Of a stretch of DNA of 64,000 nt, positions 49,413 through 64,000 are shown piece after piece. Position numbers and translations under genes: made by a program. The notes under the pieces were generated by a model. That model made no database searches and was not told the DNA's origin. It worked only from the letters and a program-made list of their open reading frames with translations. The stretch covers positions 806,001 to 870,000 of the forward strand of contig NZ_CP019420.1 in assembly GCF_001984215.1 (NCBI RefSeq), written 5' to 3'. Numbering within the stretch: the first letter of the stretch is position 1; each line of letters starts with the position of its first letter. The stretch is from Mycobacterium sp. MS1601 (GTDB lineage: Bacteria > Actinomycetota > Actinomycetes > Mycobacteriales > Mycobacteriaceae).

Positions 49413-50123
49413 TCAGTGACTTCCTTCACGCGCAGCCGCAGCAGCCAGCGCTTCACTTTCGCGACGGGCGCGCAGCATGCCTGCCGGCGCGACGTCCTCG
49501 ATGGGCAGGCCACGACGGGCCGCCACCTCTTCGGGACGCTGCAGCAGCTTCAGCGCGGCAACGGTGGCGTGCACCACGTTGATCGCGTTGTCGCTGCCCA
49601 GCGACTTGGCCAGCACGTCATGCACACCGGCGCATTCCAGCACCGCGCGGCACGCGCCACCGGCGATGACACCGGTACCGGGGCTGGCGGGGCGCAGCAT
49701 GACCACACCGGCCGCGGCCTCACCCTGCACCGGGTGGGTCACGGTGCTGCCGATCAGCGGCACGCGGAAGAAGTTCTTGCGAGCTTCTTCGACACCCTTG
49801 GCGATGGCGGCCGGAACTTCCTTGGCCTTGCCGTAGCCCACGCCGACCATGCCCTTGCCGTCACCGACGATCACCAGGGCGGTGAAGCTGAAGCGCCGAC
49901 CACCCTTGACGACCTTGGAGACGCGGTTGATGGTGACGACGCGCTCGATGTACTGGCTCTTCTCGCGATCGTCGCGGCCGCCACGGCCACCACGGTCGTC
50001 GCCGCGGCCACGGCCGCGGCCACCGCGGTCGTCACGGCCGCCGCGCTGGAAATCGGTACGGGTTCCGGCACTGGGGGCGCCGGTGTTCGAGGCGCTTTCG
50101 GCGCCCGAAGTCTGCTCCGCCAT
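49413..50123 (-). CDS. rpsE: 30S ribosomal protein S5
   Basis: A 236-residue S5 with a long disordered Arg/Gly/Asp-rich N-terminal tail ([19 protein letters not shown]), longer than in E. coli. The conserved core follows: [20 protein letters not shown] and [21 protein letters not shown]5 is involved in decoding fidelity. ATG 50123 (MAEQ, the mycobacterial start) is used; an adjacent ATG at 50126 is in frame. A GGAAGGA site precedes. Confidence 0.97.
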
Positions 50124-50149
50124 CATGCGGTCCTTCCGTTGTCAGTCAT

Positions 50150-50557
50150 TTAGAACTCGAGTCCGTTCTCGCGGGCGGCGTCGGCCAGGGCCGCGATGCG
50201 GCCGCCGTAGGTGTAACCACCGCGGTCGAACACGATGGCGTTCACGCCGGCAGCCTTGGCGCGCTCGGCGATCAGCTGCCCGACGCGCACGCTCTGCGCC
50301 TTCTTGTCACCCTCGACCGCACGCACGTCGGCCTCGATGGAGGACGCCGCGGCCACGGTGGTGCCGGTCAGGTCGTTCACCAACTGCACGTGGATGTGCC
50401 GCGAGGAGCGGTTGACCACCAGGCGCGGCCGCTGCTCGGTGCCGGTGACCTTCTTGCGCAGCCGGTTGTGGCGACGGATGCGCGCCACGCGACGCGTTGC
50501 GGAGACGTTCTGGCCCACCGGCTTACGGGCGGCGGCCTGTGTAGCTGTCTGAGCCAT
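50150..50557 (-). CDS. rplR: 50S ribosomal protein L18
   Basis: A 135-residue L18, which binds 5S rRNA. Conserved segments are [40 protein letters not shown] and [20 protein letters not shown]. It follows rplF by 2 nt and precedes rpsE. Confidence 0.98.
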
Positions 50558-50559
50558 GG

Positions 50560-51099
50560 TTACTTACCTGTCTTTCCGACCTTGCGGCGGATCTGCTCGC
50601 CGGCATAGCGGATGCCCTTGCCCTTGTAGGGGTCGCTCTTCCGCAGCCGGCGGATGTTCGCCGCGATCTGGCCGACCTTCTGCTTGTCGATGCCGGTGAT
50701 CGAGAACTTGGTGGGGGTCTCCACCGCGAAGGTGACGCCCTCGGGAGCCGTGATCAGCACCGGGTGGCTGTAACCGAGGGCGAACTCCAGGTCCGATCCC
50801 TTGGCAACGACGCGGTAACCGACGCCGAAGATCTCCATCTTGATGGTGTAGCCCTCGGTCACGCCGGTCACCAGGTTGGCGATCAGCGTGCGGGACAGCC
50901 CGTGCAACGAGCGGTTCTCGCGCTCGTCGTTCGGACGGGTGACGACGACTGCGCCGTCATCGTTGCGGGAGACCGAGATCGGCGCTTTGACGTCGAGGGT
51001 CAGGGTGCCCTTGGGGCCCTTGACCGCGACGTTCTGGCCGGCGATGGTCACGTCGACACCGCTGGGGATGACGACCGGTTGCTTTCCAATACGCGACAT
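50560..51099 (-). CDS. rplF: 50S ribosomal protein L6
   Basis: A 179-residue L6 near the sarcin-ricin loop. It begins [20 protein letters not shown], has the two-domain pattern ([20 protein letters not shown]) and ends [20 protein letters not shown]. Start at ATG 51099. Confidence 0.98.
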
Positions 51100-51121
51100 G
51101 GTTTCTTCGGCTCCTGTCCCG

Positions 51122-51520
51122 CTACCAGACGTACGCGAGGACTTCGCCGCCCACGCCCGATCGTGCTGCCTGACGGTCGGTCAGCAGGCCAGAGGACGTG
51201 GAGATGATGGCCACGCCCAGGCCGCCGAGAACCCGCGGCAAGTTGGTCGATTTCGCATAGACCCGCAGGCCGGGCTTGGACACCCGTCGCAGGCCGGCGA
51301 TGCTGCGCTCACGGCTGGGGCCGTACTTGAGCTGCACCACCAAAGACTTGCCCACGCGGGCATCCTCGGTGCGGTAGTCGCTGATGTAACCCTCTTTTTT
51401 GAGGATCTCGGCGATGTTCGCCTTGATCTTCGAGTGGGGCAGCGTCACTTCGTCGTGATACGCCGAGTTGGCGTTGCGCAGACGCGTCAAGAAGTCTGCG
51501 ATCGGATCCGTCATTGTCAT
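51122..51520 (-). CDS. rpsH: 30S ribosomal protein S8
   Basis: A 132-residue S8, starting [18 protein letters not shown] and ending [14 protein letters not shown]. The conserved [10 protein letters not shown] motif near the C-terminus is present. S8 binds the central 16S domain and represses the spc operon in E. coli. ATG 51520 gives the mycobacterial length; ATG 51514 is an alternative. Confidence 0.98.
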
Positions 51521-51605
51521 GACAGGTGTGTCACCTTTCTCGCGGCGGTTCCGTGCACAGGTGCGCTGGCCTGCCGCGATTTACTTGAGTCAGGAAGGGA
51601 GGGGG

Positions 51606-51791
51606 TTACCAGCTGGACTTCTGCACGCCGGGCAGCTCGCCCGCATGAGCCATCTCACGCAGGCAGATCCGGCAGAGTCCGAACTTGCGGTAAACCGCAT
51701 GCGGGCGACCGCACCTGTTGCAACGCGTGTAGCCGCGCACCGCGAACTTGGGCTTCTTGTTGGCCTTGTTGACCAGCGCTTTCTTTGCCAT
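51606..51791 (-). CDS. rpsN: 30S ribosomal protein S14, zinc-binding type Z
   Basis: A 61-residue short S14. [20 protein letters not shown] is followed by the zinc-binding CNRC and CRIC pairs. This C+ form is the housekeeping type; zinc-free paralogues occur elsewhere in mycobacteria. It starts at ATG 51791, 4 nt after the rplE stop; the upstream frame extension to 51854 is a shadow. Confidence 0.97.
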
Positions 51792-51795
51792 CTGC

Positions 51796-52368
51796 TCAGT
51801 TCTCCTTGAACGGGAAACCGAGGGCCCGCAGCAGAGCACGCCCCTCGTCGTCATTGGTCGCCGAGGTGACGACGGTGATGTCCATGCCGCGGGGGCGGTC
51901 GATGGAGTCGACGTCGATCTCGTGGAACATCGACTGCTCGTTGAGCCCGAACGTGTAGTTGCCGGTGCCGTCGAACTGCTTGGGGCTCAGCCCGCGGAAG
52001 TCGCGGATACGGGGCAGCGCGATGGAGACCAGCCGGTCGAGGAACTCCCACATCCGGTCGTTGCGCAGTGTGACGCGCGCGCCGATCGGCATGCCTTCGC
52101 GCAGCTTGAACTGGGCGATGGACTTGCGGGCCTTGCGGATCTCGGGCTTCTGGCCGGTGATCAGCTGCAGGTCGTTGACGGCGCCGTTGATCAGCTTGGC
52201 GTCACGGGCGGCGTCACCGACACCCATGTTGACGACGACCTTGACCACGCCGGGGATCTGCATGACGTTGGCGTAGTTGAACTCTTTGTTCAGCGCGTCC
52301 TTGATTTCCTCGCGGTAGCGCAGCTTCAGCCGGGGCTGAACCTTGTCGTTGCTCTCTACTGTGGTCAT
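51796..52368 (-). CDS. rplE: 50S ribosomal protein L5
   Basis: A 190-residue L5, a 5S rRNA-binding protein contacting P-site tRNA. Conserved segments are [40 protein letters not shown] and [20 protein letters not shown]. It starts at ATG 52368, 5 nt after rplX. Confidence 0.98.
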
Positions 52369-52373
52369 GTCTC

Positions 52374-52691
52374 TCAGATGTCCTTGCCGTTGGTCTTGGC
52401 GGTGCGGACGTTCTTGCCGGTCTCCTCGTCGCGACGGACGGCGACGCGGGTCGGCTTGCCGTCGGAGTCGATGACCATCACGTTCGACACGTGGATGGGA
52501 GCTTCCTGGGTGACGATGCCGCCCGAGGATGCACCGCGCTCGTTGGCCGAGACCGCCGTGTGCTTCTTGATGCGGTTGACGCCCTCGACGAGCACACGCT
52601 CGCGCTCGGGGTACGCCACCAAAACCTTGCCCTTGGCGCCCTTGTCCTTGCCCGAGATGACGAGCACGGTGTCGCCCTTACGGACCTTCAT
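52374..52691 (-). CDS. rplX: 50S ribosomal protein L24
   Basis: A 105-residue L24 with the N-terminal KOW motif ([20 protein letters not shown]) and GVNRIKKHT. It initiates 50S assembly. It is adjacent to rplN with no gap. Confidence 0.98.
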
Positions 52692-53060
52692 TTACAAAAC
52701 CTCCGGAGCCAGCGAGACGATCTTCATGAACTTCTTCTCGCGCAGCTCGCGCCCGACCGGGCCGAAGATGCGGGTACCGCGCGGATCATTGTCGGCCTTG
52801 ATGATGACAGCCGCGTTCTCGTCGAACTTGATGTAGCTGCCGTCGGCGCGACGACGTTCCTTGACGGTGCGCACCACAACGGCCTTGACGACATCGCCGC
52901 GCTTGACGTTGCCGCCGGGGATGGCGTCCTTGACGGTCGCCACGATGACATCACCGATGCCGGCGTAGCGCCGCGACGAGCCACCGAGCACGCGGATGCA
53001 CAAGATCTCCTTGGCGCCCGTGTTGTCGGCGACCTTGAGCCGCGATTCCTGCTGAATCAC
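52692..53060 (-). CDS. rplN: 50S ribosomal protein L14
   Basis: A 122-residue L14 ([20 protein letters not shown], ending [16 protein letters not shown]). It is the first gene of the minus-strand spc block. In most bacteria rpsQ lies directly upstream; here that place is taken by about 780 nt of apparently gene-free DNA and then the amidase operon, so the S10 and spc operons are separated as in other mycobacteria. Confidence 0.98.
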
Positions 53061-53845: not shown

Positions 53846-55213
53846 TCAACCGGCGGCAGCCGCCACGGCAGCAGCGGCGAGCACCAGGGTGTCGGCGTGT
53901 CGGCGGCCGACCAGCTGCAACCCGATGGGCGCTGCGCCGACCACTCCGGCGGGAACCGACACCGCCGGGTGCCCGGAGAGATTGAACGGGAACGTCGCCG
54001 CCAATGCACCCCAGTGATCCACGGGTGTTCCCGCGATCTCGGTCGGCATCGGCCCCTCCGCGGCGAACGCGGGTAGCTGCGTCGCGGGTGTCAGCAGCAG
54101 GTCGAAACGTTCGAAGGCCTGCGCCAGTACAGCGACCAGCTGCGCCCGGGCGGCGTGGGCGTCGAGCAGCGCCGCGAGGTCGGTGGACTCGGCGGCCTCC
54201 ACATAGCGGCGCACGGCGGGATGCACGCGCGCCCGTCCGGGTGCGGTCATGACGTCGACGTAGGCGTCCGGAGCGGTCAACGTGCGAAACGCCGGTCCGC
54301 ACGCCGCGTCGATCCGGACATCGGCGGCCACCCGACGTGCACCCGCCGCGGAGATGAATCGCTGCGCCGCCGCCTCGACGGTGGCCGCAACCTCGGGGTC
54401 GCACGGTCCATTGCCCAGACTGGCGGTGTACGCCACCCGCAATCCGCGCAGATCCGTGCTCGCCAGGGCGTCCTCGAACCCGGGCGAGGGCGCGGGCAGG
54501 GAGGCCCGGTCGTACGGGTCGTATCCGCATACGCTGTCGAGGAATCGGGCGGTGTCGCGCACCGTGCGGGTGAGCACCCCGTAGTGGTCGTTGTCGCCGA
54601 CGCCCCGGTGCCGGGGTCCGCGGGGAACCAGACCGAACGTCGGTTTGAATCCCACCAACGCGCAGTAGGACGCCGGTATCCGCAGCGACCCCGCGCCGTC
54701 GGTGCCAGTGGCCACCGGCACCATCCCACTGGCCACCGCGGCCGCCGAACCGCCGCTGGATCCGCCCGGGGTCAGCGCGGTGTTCCAGGGGTTGCGGGTC
54801 ACACCGTGCAATTCGGAGGCGGTGTAGGAGGCGCGGCCGAACTCCGGGGATGCCGTCAGCCCCACCGCAATGGCGCCGGCGGCCACCGCGCGGGACACCA
54901 GCGTGCAGGTGTGGTCCGCCACATGACCGGCATAGGACCGACTTCCTTTGCTGTATGGCCAACCGGCCACCGCGTGAAGCTCCTTGACCCCCAAAGGAAC
55001 TCCTGCCAGTGGCCCGGGATCGACACCGCGGTGCAGCATTCGGTCCAGCTCACGGGCCGCCGCCAGCGCCCCGTCGACGTCCACATGGACGAAGGCGTTG
55101 AGTTCCTCATTGCGCGCGGCGATCCGCGTCAGTGCCAGGCCCACCGTCTCCACCGCGCTGACCGCACCGGAACGCACCCGCTCGGCCGTCTCGACCAGGC
55201 CGGCATCACTCAC
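53846..55213 (-). CDS. Amidase-signature-family hydrolase
   Basis: A 455-residue amidase. The Ser-cisSer-Lys triad is readable: Lys in [20 protein letters not shown], the Gly/Ser stretch [20 protein letters not shown], and [20 protein letters not shown] with the nucleophile Ser. It hydrolyses an amide of unknown structure, possibly the final step of the pathway. It starts at GTG 55213, overlapping the permease stop by four bases. Last gene of the ten-gene minus-strand operon. Confidence 0.9.
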
Positions 55214-56685
55214 AGCAGCACCGCCGCCGCGAACGTGGTGGCCACCACCAAACCGACCACCACCGGCACGAACAACCGGCGAGCCAGATCCATCACCGAC
55301 ACCCCGGTGAGGCCGGCGACCACGATGAGCGACGACCAGATCACCAGGGTGCCACCGCCTGTCCAGCTGGCGCCGTTCTGCGCGATCGCGGCCAGGGTGG
55401 CAACGTCGACACCCGCGCTGTCGCCGAGGGAGCCCGCCAACGAACCGGTGAACGGCAGGCCCGGCCAGCCGCTGCCGTCGAGTCCGATCACCATGCCGAT
55501 CAACAGCATCGCGAACGCGGCGAACACGCCCGTCGACGGGATCAATGGCTCCACCTTCGCCACTGCGTCGAGCAGGAAGGCCGGTGTTTCGCCGTCCTCG
55601 GGCACACCCAGGATGGTTCCGGAGTAGTCCGACAGTCCGATGTAGACGAATCCGGCCACCGGGATCACCATGCCCATGGTGCGGAAGGAGAATCCGATGC
55701 CCTCGGTGAAATGCTGCCCGACATCACCGAGCCAGTTCTTGCGACTCACCAGTATCGCAACGGCCACCAGTGCCAGCGCCGCGGTGCCGCCCACCAACGG
55801 TGCGCCCAGACCTTCGTCGATATTCGGAACCAGTGTGGTGAAACGGCCCAGCAGCATGACCACCAACAGCACCGCGAACACCGCCGGCACCGCAAATGCC
55901 ACCAAACGCGCTGATCCGCTGGCATTTTCGTCGCCTCCGTCGGCCACCGCCGGCTCCGACGCCGCTTCGACGGGCAACACGACGGCGGCGGCCTGCACCG
56001 GGTCCAGCATCTTGGTGCGGACGTCACGCAGGTAAGCGATGGTCAGGGCCACCACACCGGCGATCAGCGCAATGATCGTGGCCCGCAGGGCGATAGCCCC
56101 GGCCGGCACATTCGCCCCTTCGGCGGACAAACTGGGGGCCACTCCCATCACCAGGTCCGAGCTCAGTGCCATGCCCTGCCCCGCGATGGCGATCGCCAAT
56201 GCCGCACCGAACGGCGGCAACCCCACCCGTACGGCGGCGGGCAGCAGGATCGCGGCAATCAGCGGTAACACAGGTGTCGGCCAGAAGGTCAGCGACAGCA
56301 GGAATGTGACCACCGCCAGCACCACATAGGAGATGTGTCCGTTGTGGAACAGTCGGCGCAGCGGCCGGATCATCACGGTCTCCGCACCGGCCTGCCGCAC
56401 GGCGCCCAACATCGCGGTCACCAAGGCGATGATGAGGAAGATGGGCAGGAGTTCGCGGGTGCCCACCATGGCTGCGTTGAACACCGCAGCCAATCCGGTG
56501 GTGACGCTGCCGGCGTAGACCAGACCCGTGAGGAACGTGGCGATGATCGCCGGTGCCACCACATTCTTCTTGGCTATCACGGTGACGATGAGCACCACGA
56601 GGCCGAGTAGGTACATCCAGTGCGCCGGTGACAATTCGGACCATCCGATCGGTTCGGGGAGAAGGTGAGCTGTTGTGAGAGCCAC
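55210..56685 (-). CDS. Multispanning transporter, probably ion-transporter (IT) type
   Basis: A 491-residue membrane protein with about 12 hydrophobic segments and a hydrophilic loop near residues 215-255. The segments PVLPLIAAILLPAAVRVGLP, ALAIAIAGQGMALSSDLVMG and the C-terminal NGASWTGGGTLVIWSSLIVV suggest a DcuC/CitM/gluconate-like carrier, but the family is not certain. It starts at GTG 56685. It probably imports the pathway substrate. 163 nt separate it from RidA, with no gene seen in the gap. Confidence 0.75.
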   Translation of the reverse strand: MALTTAHLLPEPIGWSELSPAHWMYLLGLVVLIVTVIAKKNVVAPAIIATFLTGLVYAGSVTTGLAAVFNAAMVGTRELLPIFLIIALVTAMLGAVRQAGAETVMIRPLRRLFHNGHISYVVLAVVTFLLSLTFWPTPVLPLIAAILLPAAVRVGLPPFGAALAIAIAGQGMALSSDLVMGVAPSLSAEGANVPAGAIALRATIIALIAGVVALTIAYLRDVRTKMLDPVQAAAVVLPVEAASEPAVADGGDENASGSARLVAFAVPAVFAVLLVVMLLGRFTTLVPNIDEGLGAPLVGGTAALALVAVAILVSRKNWLGDVGQHFTEGIGFSFRTMGMVIPVAGFVYIGLSDYSGTILGVPEDGETPAFLLDAVAKVEPLIPSTGVFAAFAMLLIGMVIGLDGSGWPGLPFTGSLAGSLGDSAGVDVATLAAIAQNGASWTGGGTLVIWSSLIVVAGLTGVSVMDLARRLFVPVVVGLVVATTFAAAVLL

Positions 56686-56848
56686 TGCCCGCCGGTCCGG
56701 TTCACGTGAACGATACGCGACGCGGTGGTACCGAACAGCTTGCCGGAAATCCTGTCAGGTCGTTCGGGCCTCGCAACACGAAATACGCTTGGTGGAACCA
56801 CCTTTGACTGTGCAACATGTCCAGGAACAACCGATTCGCACCTCGACA

Positions 56849-57268
56849 TCAGTTGACGGCGACCACCAACTGGACCTCGACCGGGGCACCCGAGGGCAGC
56901 GCCGCCACCCCGATGGCACTGCGGGCCGGGAGTGCCCCCGCACCGAGCAGGTCGGTGATGGCGGCCGATGCGCCGTCGGCCACTGCGGAGAGCGCCGTGA
57001 ACCCGGGACCGCATGCAATGAACACCGTCATCTGCAGGCATCGCAGCGCGGCGTCCTGGGATGTCACCGATCGCACCGCGGCCAACGCATTGCCCGCCGC
57101 CAACCCGGCCGCGCTGCGGGCCTCCTCGACGGTCAGGCTCTCCCCCACGATGCCGCTGACCAGGAGCTTGCCGTCGCGCCGCGGTGTCATCCCGGCGGTG
57201 TGGACGATGCCGTCGTGCAGGACAGCGGGGACGTAGTCGCCCTGCGGCGGAGGCGCCTCAGTCGACAC
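56849..57268 (-). CDS. RidA-family (YjgF/YER057c) protein
   Basis: A 139-residue RidA-like protein. GDYVPAVLHDGIVHTAGMTP begins the fold, and ARSAAGLAAGNALAAVRSVT and LPARSAIGVAALPSGAPVEV end it; the Arg of the PxRS motif that in RidA binds the imine carboxylate is present. RidA hydrolyses reactive enamines/imines from amine metabolism; related proteins act as catabolic deaminases. It starts at GTG 57268, overlapping the gamma-glutamyltranspeptidase stop by 11 nt. Confidence 0.87.
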   Translation of the reverse strand: MSTEAPPPQGDYVPAVLHDGIVHTAGMTPRRDGKLLVSGIVGESLTVEEARSAAGLAAGNALAAVRSVTSQDAALRCLQMTVFIACGPGFTALSAVADGASAAITDLLGAGALPARSAIGVAALPSGAPVEVQLVVAVN

Positions 57269-58823
57269 CGAGCGCGATGCCTTCCTGGCGAGGGTCGGCG
57301 GCGCCCAGCAGGATGCCCCGCTCGTCGCGGGAGATGACCTGCGCGCTTCCGCCGGCGCCGAGCGCGGGCTGGACGACGACGTGGTGGTTCTCCCCCAGTG
57401 CCTGCCGCACCGGTTCGGGCAGCGTCTCCTCGACGCGCAGTTCATCGGGAGCGCCGATGACGTCGGCGTCGGAGCCCGGGAAGACGGTGAAGCGCGAGGC
57501 GGCGACGGCCTCGGCCGGGTCCAGCCCGTGGTCCAGCAGATGAGACAGCAGCTGCATGTTCCACTGCACCTGCCCGTCGCCGCCCGGGGTGTTGCCCACG
57601 TGCAGGAGTTCACCTGCGTCGTCGGTGACGATCCAGGCGTTGAGGGTGTGTAGCGGTTTGCGGCGCGGGCTCACCTCGTTGGGGTGACCGTCGATCAGGT
57701 AGGCGCCGCGGCCCAGGCGGTTGTTGAGCACCACGCCGGTTCCGGGCACGGTGATCTTGGCGCCGAAAGTGAAGGCCAGCGAGTGGATGAAGCTGACGGC
57801 GCGGCCCTGCGAATCCACCGCGACGGTGGAGGTGGTGTCGCCGGCGCCGACTTCGATGGGTGCCGCATGTTCGGACCGGTCGTCGAGGTCGCGCCGCTGC
57901 GCGAGCAGCCGCTCGGGATCGAGGGTGTAGTTCGCGCCGCCATTGTCGCTGCCGCACAAGGCAAATCGATCCGCGAACGCCAGCCGCGCGGCGCGGGCCA
58001 GCCGGTCGATGGCCGGCGCGGACAGCCAGCCGTTGAATCCGACCGAGGCATCACAGAGCGCTGCCTGTTGCAGCACCATCCAGCCCGGGGTGGGCAGCGG
58101 CGTCTGGTGGATCAGCGCCCCCGCGTATCTCCCGGTGATCGCCGGCTCCGGCGTCACCGCAGCGGTGGCGGCCCACTCGTCCCCGGTGAACGGCGCGCCT
58201 GCTGCTTGCAGGGTGGCGACGGCGCGCTGGGCAAAGTCCCCGGTGTAGAACGCGGTGGGATTGTCGGCGAGGCGGCGGATGGTGGCGGCGAGGTCAGGTT
58301 GCGGGAGCAGGGTCCCCAGCCGAGCGCTCCGGTACACGGCCGCCAGTCCCTGGTCACCGGCCCGCAGCGCTTCTCCTGCGTCGCCCACCGTGCGCGCCGA
58401 GCACGGCAGCCCACGTTCGGCGGTCGCTGCGATCGGAGCCCACAGTTCGGCCAGTGACCGGGTTGCACCACCGGAGTGCAGTGCGGCCAGGGCGGCCGGC
58501 GCCCCGGGGACGGCGACGGACAGCGGGCCATCCATCGGGATGCTCGAAAGACCCTGCGCCCGATAGAAATCGGTGGTGCCACCGTCGGGCCCGAAACCGG
58601 ATCCGTTGACCGTCCAGATACGACCGTCGGGTTCACGGACCACGGCGAAGGCGTCCCCGCCGATGCCGCACTGCCCGGGCAGGGTCAGCCAGGTCATGGC
58701 CGCCATCGCCAGGGTGGCGTCGATGGCGTTGCCGCCCGCGGCCAGTACCTGCGTGCCGGCCAGGCTGGCCGCGGGGTGGCTGCTGCTGACCATCGCCGAG
58801 GCCGACAATGTGGGTGGACGCAT
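57258..58823 (-). CDS. Gamma-glutamyltranspeptidase-family protein
   Basis: A 521-residue Ntn-hydrolase of the GGT family. The N-terminal part reads MVSSSHPAASLAGTQVLAAG and GNAIDATLAMAAMTW; the self-processing, nucleophilic Thr is probably in GAGDTTSTVAVDSQGRAVSF near residue 330. There is no signal peptide, so unlike classical periplasmic GGT it should be cytosolic. Neighbouring ALDH and RidA suggest it cleaves a gamma-glutamyl-linked amine intermediate or acts as an acylase. It starts at ATG 58823, 5 nt after the Rieske stop. Confidence 0.88.
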   Translation of the reverse strand: MRPPTLSASAMVSSSHPAASLAGTQVLAAGGNAIDATLAMAAMTWLTLPGQCGIGGDAFAVVREPDGRIWTVNGSGFGPDGGTTDFYRAQGLSSIPMDGPLSVAVPGAPAALAALHSGGATRSLAELWAPIAATAERGLPCSARTVGDAGEALRAGDQGLAAVYRSARLGTLLPQPDLAATIRRLADNPTAFYTGDFAQRAVATLQAAGAPFTGDEWAATAAVTPEPAITGRYAGALIHQTPLPTPGWMVLQQAALCDASVGFNGWLSAPAIDRLARAARLAFADRFALCGSDNGGANYTLDPERLLAQRRDLDDRSEHAAPIEVGAGDTTSTVAVDSQGRAVSFIHSLAFTFGAKITVPGTGVVLNNRLGRGAYLIDGHPNEVSPRRKPLHTLNAWIVTDDAGELLHVGNTPGGDGQVQWNMQLLSHLLDHGLDPAEAVAASRFTVFPGSDADVIGAPDELRVEETLPEPVRQALGENHHVVVQPALGAGGSAQVISRDERGILLGAADPRQEGIALGVD

Positions 58824-58828
58824 GACAG

Positions 58829-59212
58829 TCAGTCTCTCCGCCGCTGTCGTCGGGTGGGTCCGGCGGGTGCCTCACCCGGTTTGAGCCCGACGAAGATCTC
58901 GCCGTCGCGTTCCTGGCACGGGAAGGTCTTGATGGGCTCGGTGGCCGGCGGGCTGATGGGTTCGCCGGTCTCCAGATCGAATGCGCTGCCGTGACAGGAG
59001 CACCCGATGCCGTCGTCGCGGAGCTTGCCCGAGGACAACAGGCAGTCCAGGTGCGTGCAGTAGTTGGAGGTGGCGTAGGCCTTGCCCTTGAGCCGGGCCA
59101 CCGCGAATTCGTGCTCACCGCAGTGGAACCGGCGCACGATGCCCTCCGGAACCTGCCCGGACCGGGCGACCCGGACGAACTCCGTTGTGGTGTCCTGTAT
59201 CTGCTCGGTCAT
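58829..59212 (-). CDS. Rieske [2Fe-2S] protein (second in operon)
   Basis: A 127-residue Rieske protein. CTH (Cys/His pair) and CSCH give C-x-H-x16-C-x2-H, the full ligand set, in YCTHLDCLLSS and IGCSCHGSAFDL. It has a longer C-terminus with a basic tail (TRRQRRRD). No membrane helix. It differs clearly from the ferredoxin encoded at 61879-62223; it may serve a different electron acceptor or act as a subunit. It sits between the aldehyde dehydrogenase and GGT genes, 1 nt from the dehydrogenase stop. Confidence 0.9.
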   Translation of the reverse strand: MTEQIQDTTTEFVRVARSGQVPEGIVRRFHCGEHEFAVARLKGKAYATSNYCTHLDCLLSSGKLRDDGIGCSCHGSAFDLETGEPISPPATEPIKTFPCQERDGEIFVGLKPGEAPAGPTRRQRRRD

Positions 59213-59213
59213 G

Positions 59214-60653
59214 TCACAGTCCTGGGTTGAGATAGACGGTTTTCTCGTTGAGGTAGAACTCGATCATCGACGCGCCCGCCTGCTCCTTGAACGTGGCGGT
59301 GGACGAGGCTTTGTAACCCCCGAACGGAGCGTTCATCGCCATGCCGGTGGTGGGCTGGTTGATCTTGACCAGCCCGGTCTTGGAGCTGCGGGAGAATTGT
59401 TGCGCCACGCTCAGGTCATTGGTGACGATCGCGGCCGACAACCCGAACTCCGTGGCATTGGCCAGCTCGATCGCGTCGTCGAGGCAGGCTGCGCGTTGCA
59501 CGGCGACCAGTGGCCCGAACACCTCCTCGTCCACGATGCGCATGCCGGGTTCGGCACCGGTGAAAACGGCTGGGCGAACGAAGAATCCGTCGGCCTCCAC
59601 AGCGTCGCCGCCACATCTGAGCGTCGCCCCGTCCTCGATTCCGGCCTGCACGTAGCCCAGGAACTTCTTGTGCTGGTCGGCGCTGGCCAGCGCGCCCATG
59701 TCGACACCTGGCTGGTCGCCGGGCCCCACCGTGAGCGCCTCGGCCCGGGCGACGAGGGCGGCCACCACCGCGTCGTGGTTGTCGTCGGTGACGATCACCC
59801 GGCTGGTTCCGGTGCAGGCCTGCCCCGACAACCCGAACGCGCCCTTGGCGATCAGCGCGGCGGCGCGCTCGGCGTCGGCGTCGGGCGCCACCACCACCGG
59901 GTTCTTGCCGCCCATCTCCAACTGCACGCGGCGGTGCGGGCCGACCTGGCTGTGGATCAGCCGCCCCACCGCGGTGGAACCGGTGAACGTCACCGCGGCC
60001 ACCCGCTCGTCGGCGGCCACGGCTGCACCGGCGGCACCGCCGCCCTGCACCAGCGCGATGACCTCGGGCGGCAGCCCGCCGGCCAGCAGCGCTTCGACCA
60101 GTCGTTGCCCCATCAGCGGGGTGATCTCGGACGGTTTGAACAGCACCGGGTTTCCCACCGCCAGGGCGGGGCCGAGTTTGCGTGACGGAATGTTGAGCGG
60201 GAAGTTCCACGGGGTGATGGCCCCGACGATGCCGATGGGCTCACGCAGTGTATAGAGCAGCGTCTCCCCCGCCACCGGATAGGTGGCCCCGCAGCTGCGG
60301 GTGGCCTCGGCGGCGTAGAACCGCAGGTTCATCGGGGTGCGGCCGACCTCCATGGTGGCCTCGGCCAGCGTCTTGCCCTCTTCGCGGACCAGCTCGCCGA
60401 TCAGCTGCTCACTGCGCGACTCGAGTTGCGCGGCAGCGGCTTCCAGAATGGTGGCACGACGCTCCGGTGAGGTGGCCGCCCAGGCGGGCGCGGCGGCGGC
60501 CAGCTTGTCCACGGCGAGGTGGACGTCGTCGGCGCCGGAGTCCGGGAACCTGCCGATGACGTCACCGGGGTCGGCGGGGTTGCTCCGGGTGAAGGTGGCG
60601 CCGGACACCGCCGGAACCCATTGGCCGCCGATGAAGTTCGAACCCTCGATCAT
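59214..60653 (-). CDS. NAD(P)-dependent aldehyde dehydrogenase
   Basis: A 479-residue aldehyde dehydrogenase. ITPWNFPLNIPSRKLGPALA, FTGSTAVGRLIHSQ, the catalytic Glu in LEMGGKNPVVVAP and the catalytic Cys in GLSGQACTGTSRVIV are all present; it resembles the alpha-ketoglutarate-semialdehyde/succinate-semialdehyde branch. It would oxidise an aldehyde released by the oxygenase step. ATG 60653 overlaps the reductase stop by 4 nt; the longer frame to 60902 is shadow. Confidence 0.92.
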   Translation of the reverse strand: MIEGSNFIGGQWVPAVSGATFTRSNPADPGDVIGRFPDSGADDVHLAVDKLAAAAPAWAATSPERRATILEAAAAQLESRSEQLIGELVREEGKTLAEATMEVGRTPMNLRFYAAEATRSCGATYPVAGETLLYTLREPIGIVGAITPWNFPLNIPSRKLGPALAVGNPVLFKPSEITPLMGQRLVEALLAGGLPPEVIALVQGGGAAGAAVAADERVAAVTFTGSTAVGRLIHSQVGPHRRVQLEMGGKNPVVVAPDADAERAAALIAKGAFGLSGQACTGTSRVIVTDDNHDAVVAALVARAEALTVGPGDQPGVDMGALASADQHKKFLGYVQAGIEDGATLRCGGDAVEADGFFVRPAVFTGAEPGMRIVDEEVFGPLVAVQRAACLDDAIELANATEFGLSAAIVTNDLSVAQQFSRSSKTGLVKINQPTTGMAMNAPFGGYKASSTATFKEQAGASMIEFYLNEKTVYLNPGL

Positions 60654-61882
60654 GCCGATACCTCTTCGATGTCTTCTTGGTTCTCGGAGTCGTACGCCAG
60701 GTCCCAGAGGTCGGTGTCCTCGTCGCCGAGCACCGTGGGGTCCAGCTCGCGTCCGAGGAGTTCGCGAGTCACCGAGATATCCTCTCCCCGTTCGACACTG
60801 AACGCGCCACACAGCGTGGAACCGTCGAGGTAGAAGGCGGTGAAGTCCATGCCATCGCGGTCGCCGCGGATCACCGGGGTGCCTCGCAACGCGCCGAGGC
60901 ACTGGATGTTGCGGCCGAACTGATCTGACCAGAACCAGTGTGGATCGTCGTTCTCCGCGTCGCGGCCCAGCATCGCCGATGCCACCGCGACGCCCTGGCG
61001 GCTGGCGTTGTCGAAGTGTTCCACCCGGATGTGGCGGCCCGCCCTGGTCGAGAAGCGCCGGGCCACGTCACCGGCGGCGTAGATGTGGGGCACGGAGGTG
61101 CGCCCGGCGGCGTCGACCACGATGCCGTCATCGACATGCAGCCCAGATGCGTTGGCTGCAGCGATGTTCGGGGTGATGCCGATGCCGACCACCACCGCGT
61201 CGAACTCCTCGTCACCGATCAGTACCCCGTCGGTGGTGGTGCGCAGGTCCGAGACGGAGGCTCCGGTGCGCACGTCGACACCGTTGTCCCGGTGCAGTTG
61301 CGTCACCAGTGTGCCCATGTCTGCGCCGATGGCACGCTCCAGCGGAATGGCAGCGGTCTCGAACACAGTGACGGCCACACCCGCCGCGGTGGCGGTGGCT
61401 GCCAGTTCCAGACCGATGAATCCGGCGCCGACGATGGCCAGCCTGCGGCCGGCACGCAGCTGCGGTGCCAGGAGTTTGGCGTCGTCGAGGCTGCGCAGGT
61501 AGTGCACCAGGTCGTGGCGCGGGCCGGGCACCGGCAGCCGGCGTGGGCTGCCGCCGGTGGCGAACAACACGGCATCCGCCACGATCGGCAGACGGCCGTC
61601 GAGTTCCACTGTGCGCGTGGCGGTATCGACCCTCATCACGGTGGCACCGGTGATCAGTTCGACATCGTTGGCGCTGCGCCACTTCTCCGGCAGGATCCAC
61701 AACGAGTCTTCGGAATCAGTGCCCGCCAGGAACTCCTTGGACAGCGGCGGGCGCTGATAGGGGGCGTAGGGCTCGTCGCCGATCAGGACGATCCGGCCGT
61801 CGAAGCCGTGCCGCCGCAGATTACGGGCGGCCACGGCAGACGTCTGGCCGGCCCCGATCAGGGCGTAGGTGGGGCGGGTCAC
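60650..61882 (-). CDS. NAD(P)H ferredoxin reductase (FAD-dependent)
   Basis: A 410-residue putidaredoxin/rubredoxin-reductase-type flavoprotein. FAD site TYALIGAGQTSAVAARNLRR, then PYAPYQRPPLSKEFL; NAD site RLAIVGAGFIGLELAATA; second FAD motif HIYAAGDVARRF. The C-terminal tail is acidic. It would reduce the Rieske ferredoxin encoded immediately upstream, with which it shares a four-base GTGA overlap at GTG 61882. Together they form an electron chain for the diiron oxidase. Confidence 0.93.
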   Translation of the reverse strand: MTRPTYALIGAGQTSAVAARNLRRHGFDGRIVLIGDEPYAPYQRPPLSKEFLAGTDSEDSLWILPEKWRSANDVELITGATVMRVDTATRTVELDGRLPIVADAVLFATGGSPRRLPVPGPRHDLVHYLRSLDDAKLLAPQLRAGRRLAIVGAGFIGLELAATATAAGVAVTVFETAAIPLERAIGADMGTLVTQLHRDNGVDVRTGASVSDLRTTTDGVLIGDEEFDAVVVGIGITPNIAAANASGLHVDDGIVVDAAGRTSVPHIYAAGDVARRFSTRAGRHIRVEHFDNASRQGVAVASAMLGRDAENDDPHWFWSDQFGRNIQCLGALRGTPVIRGDRDGMDFTAFYLDGSTLCGAFSVERGEDISVTRELLGRELDPTVLGDEDTDLWDLAYDSENQEDIEEVSA

Positions 61883-62223
61883 GCGGTGACCTCCTGCTGA
61901 AGTGTCGTGCTCTTCGACGTCAAGGAGATGTAGACGGTGCCGTCGTCGTCGACGCGCACCGGGTAGGTGGGCTGGCAGAGGTCCTGGTCGGCTTCGTAGC
62001 CGGTCTGGAGGTCGAACTGCCACTGATGGCCGGGGCAGATGACCTTGCCGTGCAGCAGTGTGCCCTTGAACAGCGAACGATCCTGGTGCACACACAGATC
62101 GGCGAAGGCGTAGACCTTGCCTTCGGCGGCGAAGAGCGCGATCGCGGTGCCGTCGACCTCGACGCGCAACTTGCGTCGTCGGCCCAGTTCCTTGGTGGTA
62201 GCTACTTCGACCCACTCAGCCAT
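61879..62223 (-). CDS. Rieske-type [2Fe-2S] ferredoxin
   Basis: A 114-residue soluble Rieske ferredoxin of the kind that feeds Rieske dioxygenases. CVH and CPGH (residues about 44-65) give C-x-H-x16-C-x2-H in DLCVHQDRSLFKG and KVICPGHQWQFDL. It has no signal peptide or membrane helix. It lies between the diiron oxidase and the ferredoxin reductase genes. An 18-bp hairpin separates it from the oxidase gene, so the two may be expressed at different levels. Confidence 0.93.
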   Translation of the reverse strand: MAEWVEVATTKELGRRRKLRVEVDGTAIALFAAEGKVYAFADLCVHQDRSLFKGTLLHGKVICPGHQWQFDLQTGYEADQDLCQPTYPVRVDDDGTVYISLTSKSTTLQQEVTA

Positions 62224-62242
62224 GTTTTTCCAATCCGATTTG

Positions 62243-62279
62243 GGCGTGATTCCGACCGCTGAGCGGTCGGAATCACGCC
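62243..62279. terminator. Intra-operon hairpin between HDO and Rieske ferredoxin genes
   Basis: The arms 62243-62260 and 62262-62279 are perfect 18-bp complements around one base (in practice a 3- to 5-nt loop). The hairpin lies 7 nt after the HDO stop and 20 nt before the ferredoxin ATG. No T-tract follows on the minus strand, so partial termination or mRNA processing is more likely than a complete stop. Confidence 0.65.
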
Positions 62280-62286
62280 GAAATCC

Positions 62287-63000
62287 CTAAACGGAAGCCA
62301 GCTCGGCGGCGACGTAGGTGTCGTAGAGACCCTTGGTGTAGGAGAACCGCATCTCCGCGCCCCAGCGCACCATCTGCAGGCAACGCTGCTGCAGCTGCGG
62401 GGTGTCGGCATGGTCGAGCACGATCTGGTAGCCGCGCTCACCGTGCACCACATCGGAAGTGATGTGCAGGTCGAAGAACTCGATCTCGTCCTCGGTGAAC
62501 TTGTACACCTCACGCAGCGGCACAATCTGCTTCATGTAGATGCTGGGCACCTGCGACTCCAGCCCCACCACCAGAGCAGCGGTGGCGACGACGAAGTGCT
62601 CACGCTGCGACACCGCGTAGCACCACGACTGCAGTCCGCGGGTGATGGCGTTCATGTTGTTCGGGTCCTCGATGCGTTCCTTGGTGGTGCCGCACGCTTC
62701 GCCGAACTTGATCAGCAGATCGGTGTGCCGGATGTCGGCCAGCTCCTCCTCGTACATGTTCTGCAGCGTGAAATCCTTGGCGCCCGTGTAGTAGTCAGGG
62801 GTGTTGGCATAGATGTTGGCCAGGTAGTCGGCGAACGGGCCGACGTAGTGGTAGTGGTTCTCGGCCCAGCGGGCGAAGTGGTGCCGCTCGAGCTTGCCGT
62901 CGGCCCAGGCTTTGGAGAACGACGCGTTCTTGGCCTCACGGCCCTTGATGGCGTTCTCGAGCTCGGCGCGGAACTCGTCGCGTCCCAGCAGTGCGGTCAT
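62287..63000 (-). CDS. Heme-oxygenase-like diiron oxidase/oxygenase (HDO; CADD/PqqC-like fold)
   Basis: A 237-residue all-helical protein of the TenA/PqqC/CADD superfamily. The six metal ligands of diiron HDOs can be placed: E85 and H92 (NMYEEELADIRHTDLL), E148 (VVGLESQVPS), H179, D183 and H186 (FFDLHITSDVVHGERG). The spacings (7, 56, 31, 4, 3) closely follow those recalled for the diiron protein CADD. Such enzymes activate O2 for N-oxygenation, C-C or C-N cleavage and related reactions. The start at ATG 63000 has AGGAAGGA upstream. The operon supplies its own ferredoxin and reductase. Substrate unknown. Confidence 0.85.
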   Translation of the reverse strand: MTALLGRDEFRAELENAIKGREAKNASFSKAWADGKLERHHFARWAENHYHYVGPFADYLANIYANTPDYYTGAKDFTLQNMYEEELADIRHTDLLIKFGEACGTTKERIEDPNNMNAITRGLQSWCYAVSQREHFVVATAALVVGLESQVPSIYMKQIVPLREVYKFTEDEIEFFDLHITSDVVHGERGYQIVLDHADTPQLQQRCLQMVRWGAEMRFSYTKGLYDTYVAAELASV

Positions 63001-63092
63001 GGATGGGGTCCTTCCTGACAATGAATGATGACGAAATGGGCTGCAGTGGTGGATATTCCGCGACAGTGCGGATACGTCACCGACGTTAGTGA

Positions 63093-63111
63093 GGTCAGCC
63101 GACCGCTGACC
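63093..63111. promoter_or_regulatory. Inverted repeat upstream of the HDO gene
   Basis: GGTCAGC (63093-63099) and GCTGACC (63105-63111) are perfect complements with a 5-nt spacer, 93-111 nt before the HDO ATG, in the 162-nt gap after the GlcG-like gene. It may be an operator for the PucR-type regulator, or a hairpin between the first and second gene. Confidence 0.4.
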
Positions 63112-63162
63112 AGGTACACAATGACCAGCCAGAGCGCACATCGGCGGTCATGGTGCACACCG

Positions 63163-63612
63163 TCAGCGAGCGACCGAAGCCGTCAGCGCCTCGAACTCCG
63201 CGAGAATGGCCGCGCCGACGGCCTTGTCCTGCTCACCGTTGCCGCCGCTGATGCCCACGCCTCCGACGATCTGACCGTCGAAGACCAGTGGGAATCCGCC
63301 GACGAAGATGGCGAACTTGCCGGGCAGCATGTGGCTGATGCCGAACGCCTCGTTGCCGGGCAGTGCCGGACCGTTGGGCGGTTCGTTGAACAGGTGCGTG
63401 GCACGCTCGTGGCCGGCGGCGGTGAACGCCTTGGCGATCGCGATGTCGACGCCGGTCAGCCGTGCCCCCGGAAGGCGGTGCAGCGCAAGCACATTGCCAC
63501 CGTCGTCGACGACACACAAGGTTTGCTTGACGCCGATCTCCTCGGCCTTCGCACGCCCGGCCGCCAGCAGCGGAAGAGCGTCGTCGAGGGTGATCCGGTG
63601 GATTTGGTGCAT
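63163..63612 (-). CDS. GlcG/HbpS-family (DUF336) protein
   Basis: A 149-residue protein of the GlcG/HbpS fold: ITLDDALPLLAAGRAKAEEI, CVVDDGGNVLALHRLPGARL, SHMLPGKFAIFVGGFPLVFD and the late GGVGISGGNGEQD segment are family hallmarks. HbpS binds heme; others accompany catabolic genes without known activity. It is the first gene of the minus-strand operon and divergent from the PucR-type regulator. No export signal is seen, so it is probably cytosolic. Confidence 0.88.
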   Translation of the reverse strand: MHQIHRITLDDALPLLAAGRAKAEEIGVKQTLCVVDDGGNVLALHRLPGARLTGVDIAIAKAFTAAGHERATHLFNEPPNGPALPGNEAFGISHMLPGKFAIFVGGFPLVFDGQIVGGVGISGGNGEQDKAVGAAILAEFEALTASVAR

Positions 63613-63801
63613 GCGCCTGCCTCGCTTTGATTCGGGGATTGTGCGATCGGTGTGAGAAAAGTTCTACCAACGCACTCCCCTGGGCGGCAGGGCCAAGTTG
63701 TCCGGTCGCAACGAGCAAACCAGGTTAAAGTGCACATAGGTCGTGTGCTGAGTTCAGGTGTACCGATTGACACCACACCCAGCCAGGAGGCGACGATTCC
63801 G
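63613..63801. other. Divergent control region GlcG-like / PucR-type regulator
   Basis: No gene is seen in these 189 nt. They must hold the promoters of the HDO operon (minus) and the regulator (plus). No clear palindrome stands out; AGGAGG lies at about 63784-63790, serving the regulator ATG at 63802. Confidence 0.4.
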
Positions 63802-64000
63802 ATGACAGCGCAGGTGAGAACAGTGCAGGCAACCAGCGACGACCACCGGCTGACCGTCGCCGGCTTGCTCGACGAGTCACTGATGGCGGGCGCCCAGGTG
63901 CTCGCGGGTGCCGACCGGCTGCACGCCGAGTTGCAGTGGGTGCTGCCGCTCAGTGAGGTGCTCTCACGCCACGACCCACTCGACGGGGTGGCTGTCTACA
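63802..64000 (+). CDS. PucR-family transcriptional regulator (5-prime part only)
   Basis: The first 66 codons of a regulator that runs off the window end. After a short tail, residues about 22-66 (LTVAGLLDESLMAGAQVLAG, then LQWVLPLSEVLSRHDPLDGV) match the N-terminal PucR ligand domain of regulators for purine, GABA and other nitrogen-source catabolism. The ATG at 63802 has AGGAGG about 12 nt upstream. Divergence from the HDO operon makes it the likely activator. The C-terminal HTH lies outside the window. Confidence 0.8.
   Translation, partial: MTAQVRTVQATSDDHRLTVAGLLDESLMAGAQVLAGADRLHAELQWVLPLSEVLSRHDPLDGVAVY

What the first reader, a model, noticed from the sequence alone, without database searches (positions are those of the whole stretch)
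53846..63612. Ten-gene operon around a diiron oxidase with its own electron-transfer chain
On one strand, with mostly overlapping genes: GlcG/HbpS, HDO, Rieske ferredoxin, ferredoxin reductase, aldehyde dehydrogenase, second Rieske protein, cytosolic GGT, RidA, transporter, amidase, with a divergent PucR-type regulator. Seen: gene order, overlaps, motifs. Known: HDO enzymes use O2 and need electrons; RidA and GGT act on amine and gamma-glutamyl intermediates. Inferred: an oxygenase-led catabolic route for an amine or amide, giving an aldehyde, that I do not recognise as described. HDOs with a dedicated Rieske ferredoxin and reductase would be a notable arrangement.
Basis: partly seen in the sequence, partly recalled or inferred. 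Interest (0 to 1): 0.82.

Follow-up and report, generated by a model that had tools for sequence, protein, structure and literature searches.

The report
Oxygenase pathway with swappable electron supply
A gene cluster shared by many soil bacteria seems to feed on a still unknown nitrogen-containing acid, using an oxygen-activating iron enzyme of a type known so far mainly from making natural products, here apparently powered by its own dedicated electron-carrier proteins.

Summary
In detail: at 53846-63612 (minus strand) lie the ten genes named, beside a divergent PucR-type regulator. The HDO has the complete 3-His/3-carboxylate ligand set in 86 of 86 loci; its closest fold is CADD, but CADD's sacrificial Tyr and donor Lys are Ser and Gln here. 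In the 80 best actinobacterial loci a Rieske ferredoxin follows the HDO in 79 of 79 testable and an HcaD-type reductase in 77 of 77. In 401 genomes of the family, HDO, GlcG and this reductase are inherited together (38, 38 and 40 genomes). Six betaproteobacterial plasmid records keep HDO, ALDH, GlcG and transporter, but carry a plant-type ferredoxin and an FNR-type reductase instead; one distant actinobacterium carries both ferredoxin types. So the HDO very probably is a multi-component, NADH-driven oxygenase in a catabolic pathway for a nitrogen-containing carboxylate; the substrate is unknown. Corrections: the 'GGT' lacks the residues that bind gamma-glutamyl, and the transporter-amidase tail is accessory. 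Closest precedents are MboA/MboB (an HDO with an FNR-type partner) and Aib monooxygenase (same logic, other fold). New variant of a known kind; nothing was assayed.

The parts
63163..63612 (-). GlcG/HbpS-family protein (149 aa)
   Evidence: PF03928 113.2 bits, cut-off 25; in 63 of 65 loci with >=7 kb flanks; present in all 6 betaproteobacterial records
62287..63000 (-). HDO: haem-oxygenase-like dimetal oxidase/oxygenase (237 aa), proposed terminal oxygenase
61879..62223 (-). Rieske ferredoxin 1 (114 aa), proposed electron donor to HDO
   Evidence: PF00355 57.6 bits; same strand, within 500 bp downstream of HDO in 79 of 79 testable loci; C-x-H...C-x-x-H found in 79 of 80 (the miss is L054, cause not examined)
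60650..61882 (-). Ferredoxin reductase, HcaD/AndAa-like (410 aa, GTG start)
   Evidence: PF07992 + PF14759; within 1.2 kb downstream of HDO in 77 of 77 testable loci; overlaps Rieske 1 by 4 bp
59214..60653 (-). Aldehyde dehydrogenase (479 aa)
   Evidence: PF00171 479.4 bits; best NCBIfam model 2,5-dioxovalerate dehydrogenase, 493.9 bits, below its cut-off 750; 64 of 65 loci
58829..59212 (-). Rieske protein 2 (127 aa)
   Evidence: PF00355 69.4 bits; 65 of 65 loci; motif intact in 76 of 76 found
57258..58823 (-). GGT-fold Ntn hydrolase homologue without glutamate-binding residues (521 aa)
   Evidence: PF01019 273.7 bits; below TIGR00066 cut-off, 210.4 vs 357.85; residue comparison with E. coli GGT chain 2e0w
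56849..57268 (-). Rid-family protein (imine deaminase family; GTG start, overlaps previous gene by 11 bp)
   Evidence: PF01042 49.3 bits, cut-off 27.3; nearest solved structure PA0814
55210..56685 (-). Membrane transporter, IT-superfamily-like fold (491 aa as the longest ORF; the alignment suggests a later start)
   Evidence: no Pfam family alone; DcuC hit in 1 of 28 relatives, E 2.6e-4; model pLDDT 83.1 matches MleN, TRAP SiaQM, NaDC3
53846..55213 (-). Amidase-signature hydrolase (455 aa, GTG start); accessory
   Evidence: PF01425 314.1 bits; amidase match in 15 of 65 loci
63802..64000 (+). PucR-type regulator, first part; continues outside the window
   Evidence: PF13556 68 bits, PF17853 49.2 bits on L002:4799-6490
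63724..63737 (-). Candidate operator ATGTGCA-N1-4-TKRMC in the GlcG/PucR intergenic region
   Evidence: found upstream of GlcG in 22 of 45 sequences (window included), mononucleotide shuffles mean 0.005; only match in the 64-kb window

Best explanation
The island encodes a catabolic pathway opened by a three-component HDO. NADH reduces the flavoprotein reductase, which reduces Rieske ferredoxin 1, which delivers external electrons to the diiron HDO for each O2 used. The HDO oxidatively cleaves a carboxylate that contains nitrogen and is imported by the IT-superfamily-like transporter and/or the MFS protein. The products are a carboxylate-bearing aldehyde, oxidised by the ALDH, and an imine or amide, handled by the Rid protein (or an OCD-family enzyme in other lineages) and the GGT-fold Ntn hydrolase; GlcG/HbpS may load or protect the labile metal site. 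PucR controls the operon. Shown: gene content, motifs, ligand set, co-inheritance, replacement of the electron chain in betaproteobacteria. Inferred: the electron route, the catabolic direction, substrate class, every reaction, and the roles of Rieske 2 and GlcG.
For: Complete ligand set in 86 of 86 loci; HDO fold. Rieske 1 downstream in 79 of 79 and reductase in 77 of 77 testable loci; among 65 loci with >=7 kb flanks: Rieske 2 65, ALDH 64, transporter 64, PucR 64, GlcG 63, Rid 63, GGT 61, MFS 60. All-or-none inheritance in 401 family genomes: HDO 38, GlcG 38, the same set, reductase 40, the same 38 plus two at 44-46% identity. In the own genome no P450 match lies nearer than about 28 kb and no other Rieske protein is near. 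Six of 6 betaproteobacterial records have HDO, ALDH, GlcG and transporter with Fer2 ferredoxin + FNR-type reductase, and 0 of 6 match Rieske 1/2, FdR, GGT, Rid or PucR at E 1e-5. L146 (HDO 74-75%) has Fer2 and Rieske ferredoxins and OCD. Five of the seven distant HDO loci (27-31% identity) were read with longer flanks: no Rieske or Fer2 match; all seven lack them within about 1.5 kb or less. Precedents: PMC13185094, PMC7782822.
Against: No biochemistry. The 80 loci are the best 80 of 511, so they are close relatives, not independent. The six plasmid records are about four distinct islands (CH34/FDAARGOS_675 match at 100%, SBC1/SBC2 share protein accessions). L146 shows no FdR or FNR-type reductase match in 17 kb. 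L149, a distant HDO, has a weak reductase match 4.6 kb away; flanks of these controls are short on some sides. One record (L113, Caballeronia) has an annotated ring-hydroxylating dioxygenase alpha/beta pair about 10 kb from the HDO. HDOs studied so far do not need a protein effector (PMC13108848), and chemical reductants or mediators support others in vitro (PMC13185094). The role of the second Rieske protein is unexplained. Substrate and reaction are unknown.
Confidence: 0.66

Rival explanations
1. The reductase and Rieske proteins serve a different terminal oxygenase (ring-hydroxylating oxygenase or P450) and the HDO is a partner-independent enzyme of the same pathway.
For: The Rieske ferredoxins and reductase resemble those of ring-hydroxylating dioxygenases; there are two Rieske proteins, so one could serve something else; L113 has a ring-hydroxylating dioxygenase pair about 10 kb from the HDO.
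Against: No other Rieske protein or P450 near in the own genome, and by eye none among the recurring gene families listed for 83 loci (first 70 families, not scanned with Pfam); HDO-Rieske 1 adjacency in 79 of 79 loci through rearrangements; L113, where the dioxygenase pair is, has no Rieske 1/FdR homologue but the Fer2/FNR chain next to the HDO.
Confidence: 0.14
2. The island is biosynthetic: the HDO makes a cofactor or natural product, as CADD or PqqC relatives do.
For: Nearest sequences and folds are CADD and PqqC; the functions listed for HDOs in the 2026 review are biosynthetic (PMC13108848, sections 4 and 11 read).
Against: CADD Tyr27 and Lys152 are Ser29 and Gln158 (alignment; both invariant in 40 of 40); below the CADD and PqqC model cut-offs; two transporters, ALDH, Rid and PucR fit catabolism; no peptide ligase or NRPS seen by eye among the recurring families; presence in 38 of 401 genomes does not fit an essential cofactor.
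Confidence: 0.1
3. The island detoxifies or repairs damaged or reactive metabolites, or protects from oxidative stress, with Rid, ALDH and HDO acting on by-products rather than on a nutrient.
For: Rid proteins have broad imine deaminase activity (PMC5619798, passages read); an HDO-like protein, DtpC, is tied to desiccation and oxidative stress (PMC13232832, passages read); GlcG/HbpS is haem/iron related by family name.
Against: Transporter-family matches in 64 (TRSP) and 60 (MFS) of 65 loci and a PucR regulator in 64 point to an external substrate.
Confidence: 0.1

Closest known systems
MboA/MboB, mangotoxin HDO acetylenase and its reductase (PMC13185094, passages read)
   Same: HDO with a dedicated, NADH-driven redox partner; 3-His/3-carboxylate ligands. 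The betaproteobacterial relatives of this island also have an FNR-type flavin/Fe2S2 reductase.
   Different: Biosynthetic, acts on a tripeptide; one reductase protein only. Here two proteins, Rieske ferredoxin + HcaD-type reductase, in a catabolic-looking island.
Aib monooxygenase AibH1H2-AibG-AibF of Rhodococcus wratislaviensis (PMC7782822, passages read)
   Same: Non-haem diiron oxygenase + Rieske ferredoxin + reductase + ALDH + transporter for catabolism of a nitrogen-containing acid in an actinobacterium.
   Different: The oxygenase is an amidohydrolase-fold heterotetramer, the reductase an FMN protein annotated with a 2Fe-2S domain; LysR regulator; no Rid, GGT or GlcG in the cluster table seen.
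CADD / NePabS self-sacrificing p-aminobenzoate synthase
   Same: Closest solved structures and sequence family; same metal ligands.
   Different: Both self-sacrificed residues are replaced (Tyr27 by Ser29, Lys152 by Gln158); folate synthesis.
HcaC/HcaD and AndAb/AndAa ferredoxin-reductase pairs of ring-hydroxylating dioxygenases
   Same: Same protein families as Rieske 1/2 and FdR.
   Different: No oxygenase alpha/beta subunits in this cluster; below the curated cut-offs.

Membership tests
HDO superfamily | Haem_oxygenas_2 family (PF14518) above cut-off | tested here: met
   118.1 bits vs 28.9
HDO superfamily | 3-His/3-carboxylate ligand set | tested here: met
   E85 H92 E148 H179 D183 H186 in 86 of 86 loci
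HDO superfamily | Seven-helix haem-oxygenase-like fold | tested here: met
HDO superfamily | Bound dimetal centre that activates O2 | not testable with these tools
   needs purified protein
CADD p-aminobenzoate synthase | Sacrificial Tyr27 | tested here: not met
   Ser29 by the alignment; invariant in 40 of 40 aligned
CADD p-aminobenzoate synthase | Amino-donor Lys152 | tested here: not met
   Gln158 by the alignment (also against 9pj4); invariant in 40 of 40 aligned
CADD p-aminobenzoate synthase | TIGR04305 cut-off | tested here: not met
   87.1 bits vs 200
PqqC | TIGR02111 cut-off | tested here: not met
   41.6 bits vs 240
Rieske ring-hydroxylating oxygenase system | Rieske ferredoxin and Reductase_C reductase | tested here: met
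Rieske ring-hydroxylating oxygenase system | Rieske/mononuclear-iron alpha subunit in the cluster | tested here: not met
   No other Rieske match on contig 1 between 205 and 1785 kb
Gamma-glutamyltranspeptidase | Fold family and nucleophile Thr | tested here: met
   PF01019 273.7 bits; Thr at the E. coli nucleophile position (by eye)
Gamma-glutamyltranspeptidase | Glutamate-binding residues of E. coli GGT (list recalled: R114, N411, Q430, D433, S462, S463) | tested here: not met
   S, A, R, R, H, T at these positions, read by eye from the alignment
Rid family | PF01042 above cut-off | tested here: met
   49.3 bits vs 27.3; TIGR00004 cut-off not reached, 27.8 vs 106.25
MboAB-type HDO-reductase pair | FNR-type flavin/Fe2S2 reductase encoded beside the HDO | tested here: not met
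   No such family among the ten genes; such a reductase is in 6 of 6 betaproteobacterial records (families of one of them)
Aib monooxygenase | Amidohydrolase-superfamily hydroxylase subunits | tested here: not met
   Pfam families of the ten genes

The most novel reading that the evidence does not exclude
A large clade of catabolic, ferredoxin-dependent HDOs in Actinobacteria and Proteobacteria (64-70% identity between the two in the sequences aligned) that opens an undescribed degradation route for a common nitrogen-containing carboxylate. The HDO is the fixed core; its electron chain (Rieske + HcaD-type reductase, or plant-type ferredoxin + FNR-type reductase, or both ferredoxins) and its imine-handling enzyme (Rid or OCD) are interchangeable modules.
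Probability: 0.5. Interest if true: 0.78.

Novelty: new variant of a known kind. Interest (0 to 1): 0.62.

Why it matters
The 2026 review counts about a dozen functionally validated HDOs, and the functions it lists are biosynthetic; their electrons usually come from chemical reductants or mediators in the test tube. A conserved system with its own NADH-ferredoxin chain would give a catalytically supported HDO to study, extend the superfamily to catabolism, and point to a nutrient used by many soil bacteria. The chain swap between phyla gives a natural experiment on what docks to an HDO.

Tried and rejected
Rejected: CADD or PqqC function (cut-offs, Tyr27 and Lys152); gamma-glutamylation route; phage carriage (no match in the phage records). 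Substrate guesses from the ALDH (2,5-dioxovalerate-like), Rid, OCD and transporter remained guesses; solved-structure look-ups and paper searches named no substrate. Promoter/terminator scan: no promoter-like sites and 2 terminator-like sites, fewer than in shuffles. Perfect palindromes upstream of GlcG: none in 12 of the 14 sequences printed of 45. The 8-mer counts led to the motif, which was chosen after seeing the data; apart from one Gordonia locus and one unnamed actinobacterial MAG it is seen in mycobacterial loci, and its shuffles ignore relatedness. The alignment (29 rows) was not used for folding; A2 (40 rows) was. Foldseek rows beyond 50 were not seen. In the 401-genome searches only the best first-look candidates were scored (4 per genome for the reductase, up to 9 for GlcG).
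Full report
OBSERVATION. Pfam and NCBIfam assign HbpS/GlcG, Haem_oxygenas_2 (HDO), Rieske, Pyr_redox_2 + Reductase_C, aldehyde dehydrogenase, a second Rieske protein, G_glu_transpept, Rid and amidase; the transporter matches no family. A PucR protein is divergent, starts at 63802 (or at an in-frame GTG at 63652) and leaves the window. Four of nine junctions overlap and two carry gaps of about 160 bp. The window is a stretch of a 6.8-Mb genome.

CO-INHERITANCE. A scan of genome contigs found 511 relatives, of which the best 80 were kept. Rieske 1 lies downstream of the HDO on the same strand in 79 of 79 loci with enough sequence and the reductase in 77 of 77. Of 65 loci with at least 7 kb on both sides, Rieske 1, reductase and Rieske 2 are in 65, ALDH, transporter and PucR in 64, GlcG and Rid in 63, GGT in 61, MFS in 60, amidase in 15 (presence means a tblastn match at E 1e-6 or better within the fetched stretch, so generic families such as ALDH, MFS and amidase may be over-counted). 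Order is rearranged between lineages, which argues for function rather than frozen order. In 401 genomes of the family, HDO occurs in 38 (E 1e-20), GlcG in the same 38 (E 1e-55) and the reductase in those 38 plus two at 44-46% identity (E 1e-85). At phylum level 8 of 396 genomes matched at E 1e-15, the own genome included; of the other seven, one is at 75% identity and six are distant.

SWAPPED ELECTRON CHAINS. All six plasmid records with the HDO (Cupriavidus, Caballeronia; 65-69% identity) carry OCD, HDO, ALDH, GlcG, an FNR-type reductase (Fer2, FAD_binding_6, NAD_binding_1 in L112), a Fer2 ferredoxin, a 106-aa protein and the transporter; none matches Rieske 1/2, the Reductase_C-type reductase, GGT, Rid or PucR at E 1e-5. 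The six are about four distinct islands. In L113 a ring-hydroxylating dioxygenase alpha/beta pair is annotated about 10 kb from the HDO. A distant actinobacterial genome (L146, HDO 74-75%) has a Fer2 ferredoxin and a Rieske protein next to the HDO, plus OCD, GlcG, ALDH, MFS and a divergent GGT-fold protein, but no reductase match in 17 kb. Of the seven more distant HDO loci (27-31% identity), none shows a Rieske or Fer2 match within the short fetched flanks; five were read with longer, partly one-sided flanks and again none did, while one has a weak reductase match 4.6 kb away. So a ferredoxin-type supply goes with this HDO clade whatever its type. Imine chemistry shows a similar pattern: Rid in one group, OCD in the other; this parallel is inference.

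OTHER PARTS. The GGT homologue keeps the Thr nucleophile but has S, A, R, R, H, T where E. coli GGT has R114, N411, Q430, D433, S462, S463 (residue list recalled; alignment, read by eye). It is better read as an Ntn amidohydrolase. The Rid protein is nearest to PA0814, a Rid1 protein with imine deaminase activity (PMC5619798, passages). The transporter model matches IT-superfamily carriers (a model of MleN, TRAP SiaQM, NaDC3; E 9e-6 to 2e-4, TM 0.4-0.6), and one of 28 relatives hits DcuC weakly, which suggests an organic anion. A motif ATGTGCA-N1-4-TKRMC lies in the GlcG/PucR gap in 22 of 45 sequences.

MECHANISM. NADH to FdR to Rieske 1 to HDO is the simplest reading; in the own genome no P450 or other Rieske protein is near. 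The HDO would cleave a nitrogen-containing carboxylate to an aldehyde, for the ALDH, and an imine or amide, for Rid/OCD and the Ntn hydrolase. None of these reactions is shown. Rieske 2 and GlcG have no assigned step; a metal-loading or protective role for GlcG is a guess from HDO metal lability (PMC13108848, section 4).

KNOWN WORK. The 2026 review (PMC13108848: abstract, passages, sections 4 and 11 read) counts about a dozen validated HDOs, and in the parts read names one redox partner, MboB. The MboA paper (PMC13185094, passages) says MboAB may be the first characterised dedicated HDO-redox partner pair. Aib monooxygenase (PMC7782822, passages) has the same pathway logic with another oxygenase fold. 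Also seen in passages: PMC11965152, PMC13232832 (an HDO-like protein linked to desiccation tolerance), PMC13118837. Ten searches listed no paper that I recognised as describing this cluster; most subscription papers and bioRxiv are not held, and only the papers named were opened, so this is not proof of absence.

VERDICT. A real, widely conserved HDO-centred island; a new variant of a known kind. The electron-chain claim is well supported by comparison but untested; the substrate is open.

Noticed in passing
window 49413-53060 and 53846-63612: In this genome the island sits directly after rplN, i.e. beside the ribosomal-protein gene cluster, and an arylsulfatase-like gene (by eye) lies beyond it (L002 10500-12851). 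An rplN-like ORF occurs within the fetched flank in 17 of the 83 loci compared, so this site recurs.
   Followed up: partly
L002 8246-9778 and 6560-7921 (window-equivalent 67246-68778 and 65560-66921): A second copy of the transporter family and an MFS protein lie beyond PucR; the copy beyond PucR seems the more widespread one, while a close match to the copy inside the window operon is seen mainly in mycobacterial loci.
   Followed up: partly
L112 10400-10720, also in L113, L114, L143-L145: A 106-aa protein without Pfam match accompanies the Fer2 ferredoxin in all six betaproteobacterial records (37-100% identity); it could be a component of that electron chain.
   Followed up: no
L113 and L144 (Caballeronia SBC2/SBC1 plasmids): ISNCY-family transposase genes lie downstream of the island on both plasmids (annotations).
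   Followed up: no
L086 13-2175: Beside the Pseudonocardia acaciae island, ORFs that look by eye like a glutamate-synthase-type FMN domain and a glutamine-synthetase-like protein; not among the recurring families printed.
   Followed up: no
L002 9783-10487: A DUF1275 membrane protein follows the second transporter; similar proteins recur (24 loci, family 11).
   Followed up: no
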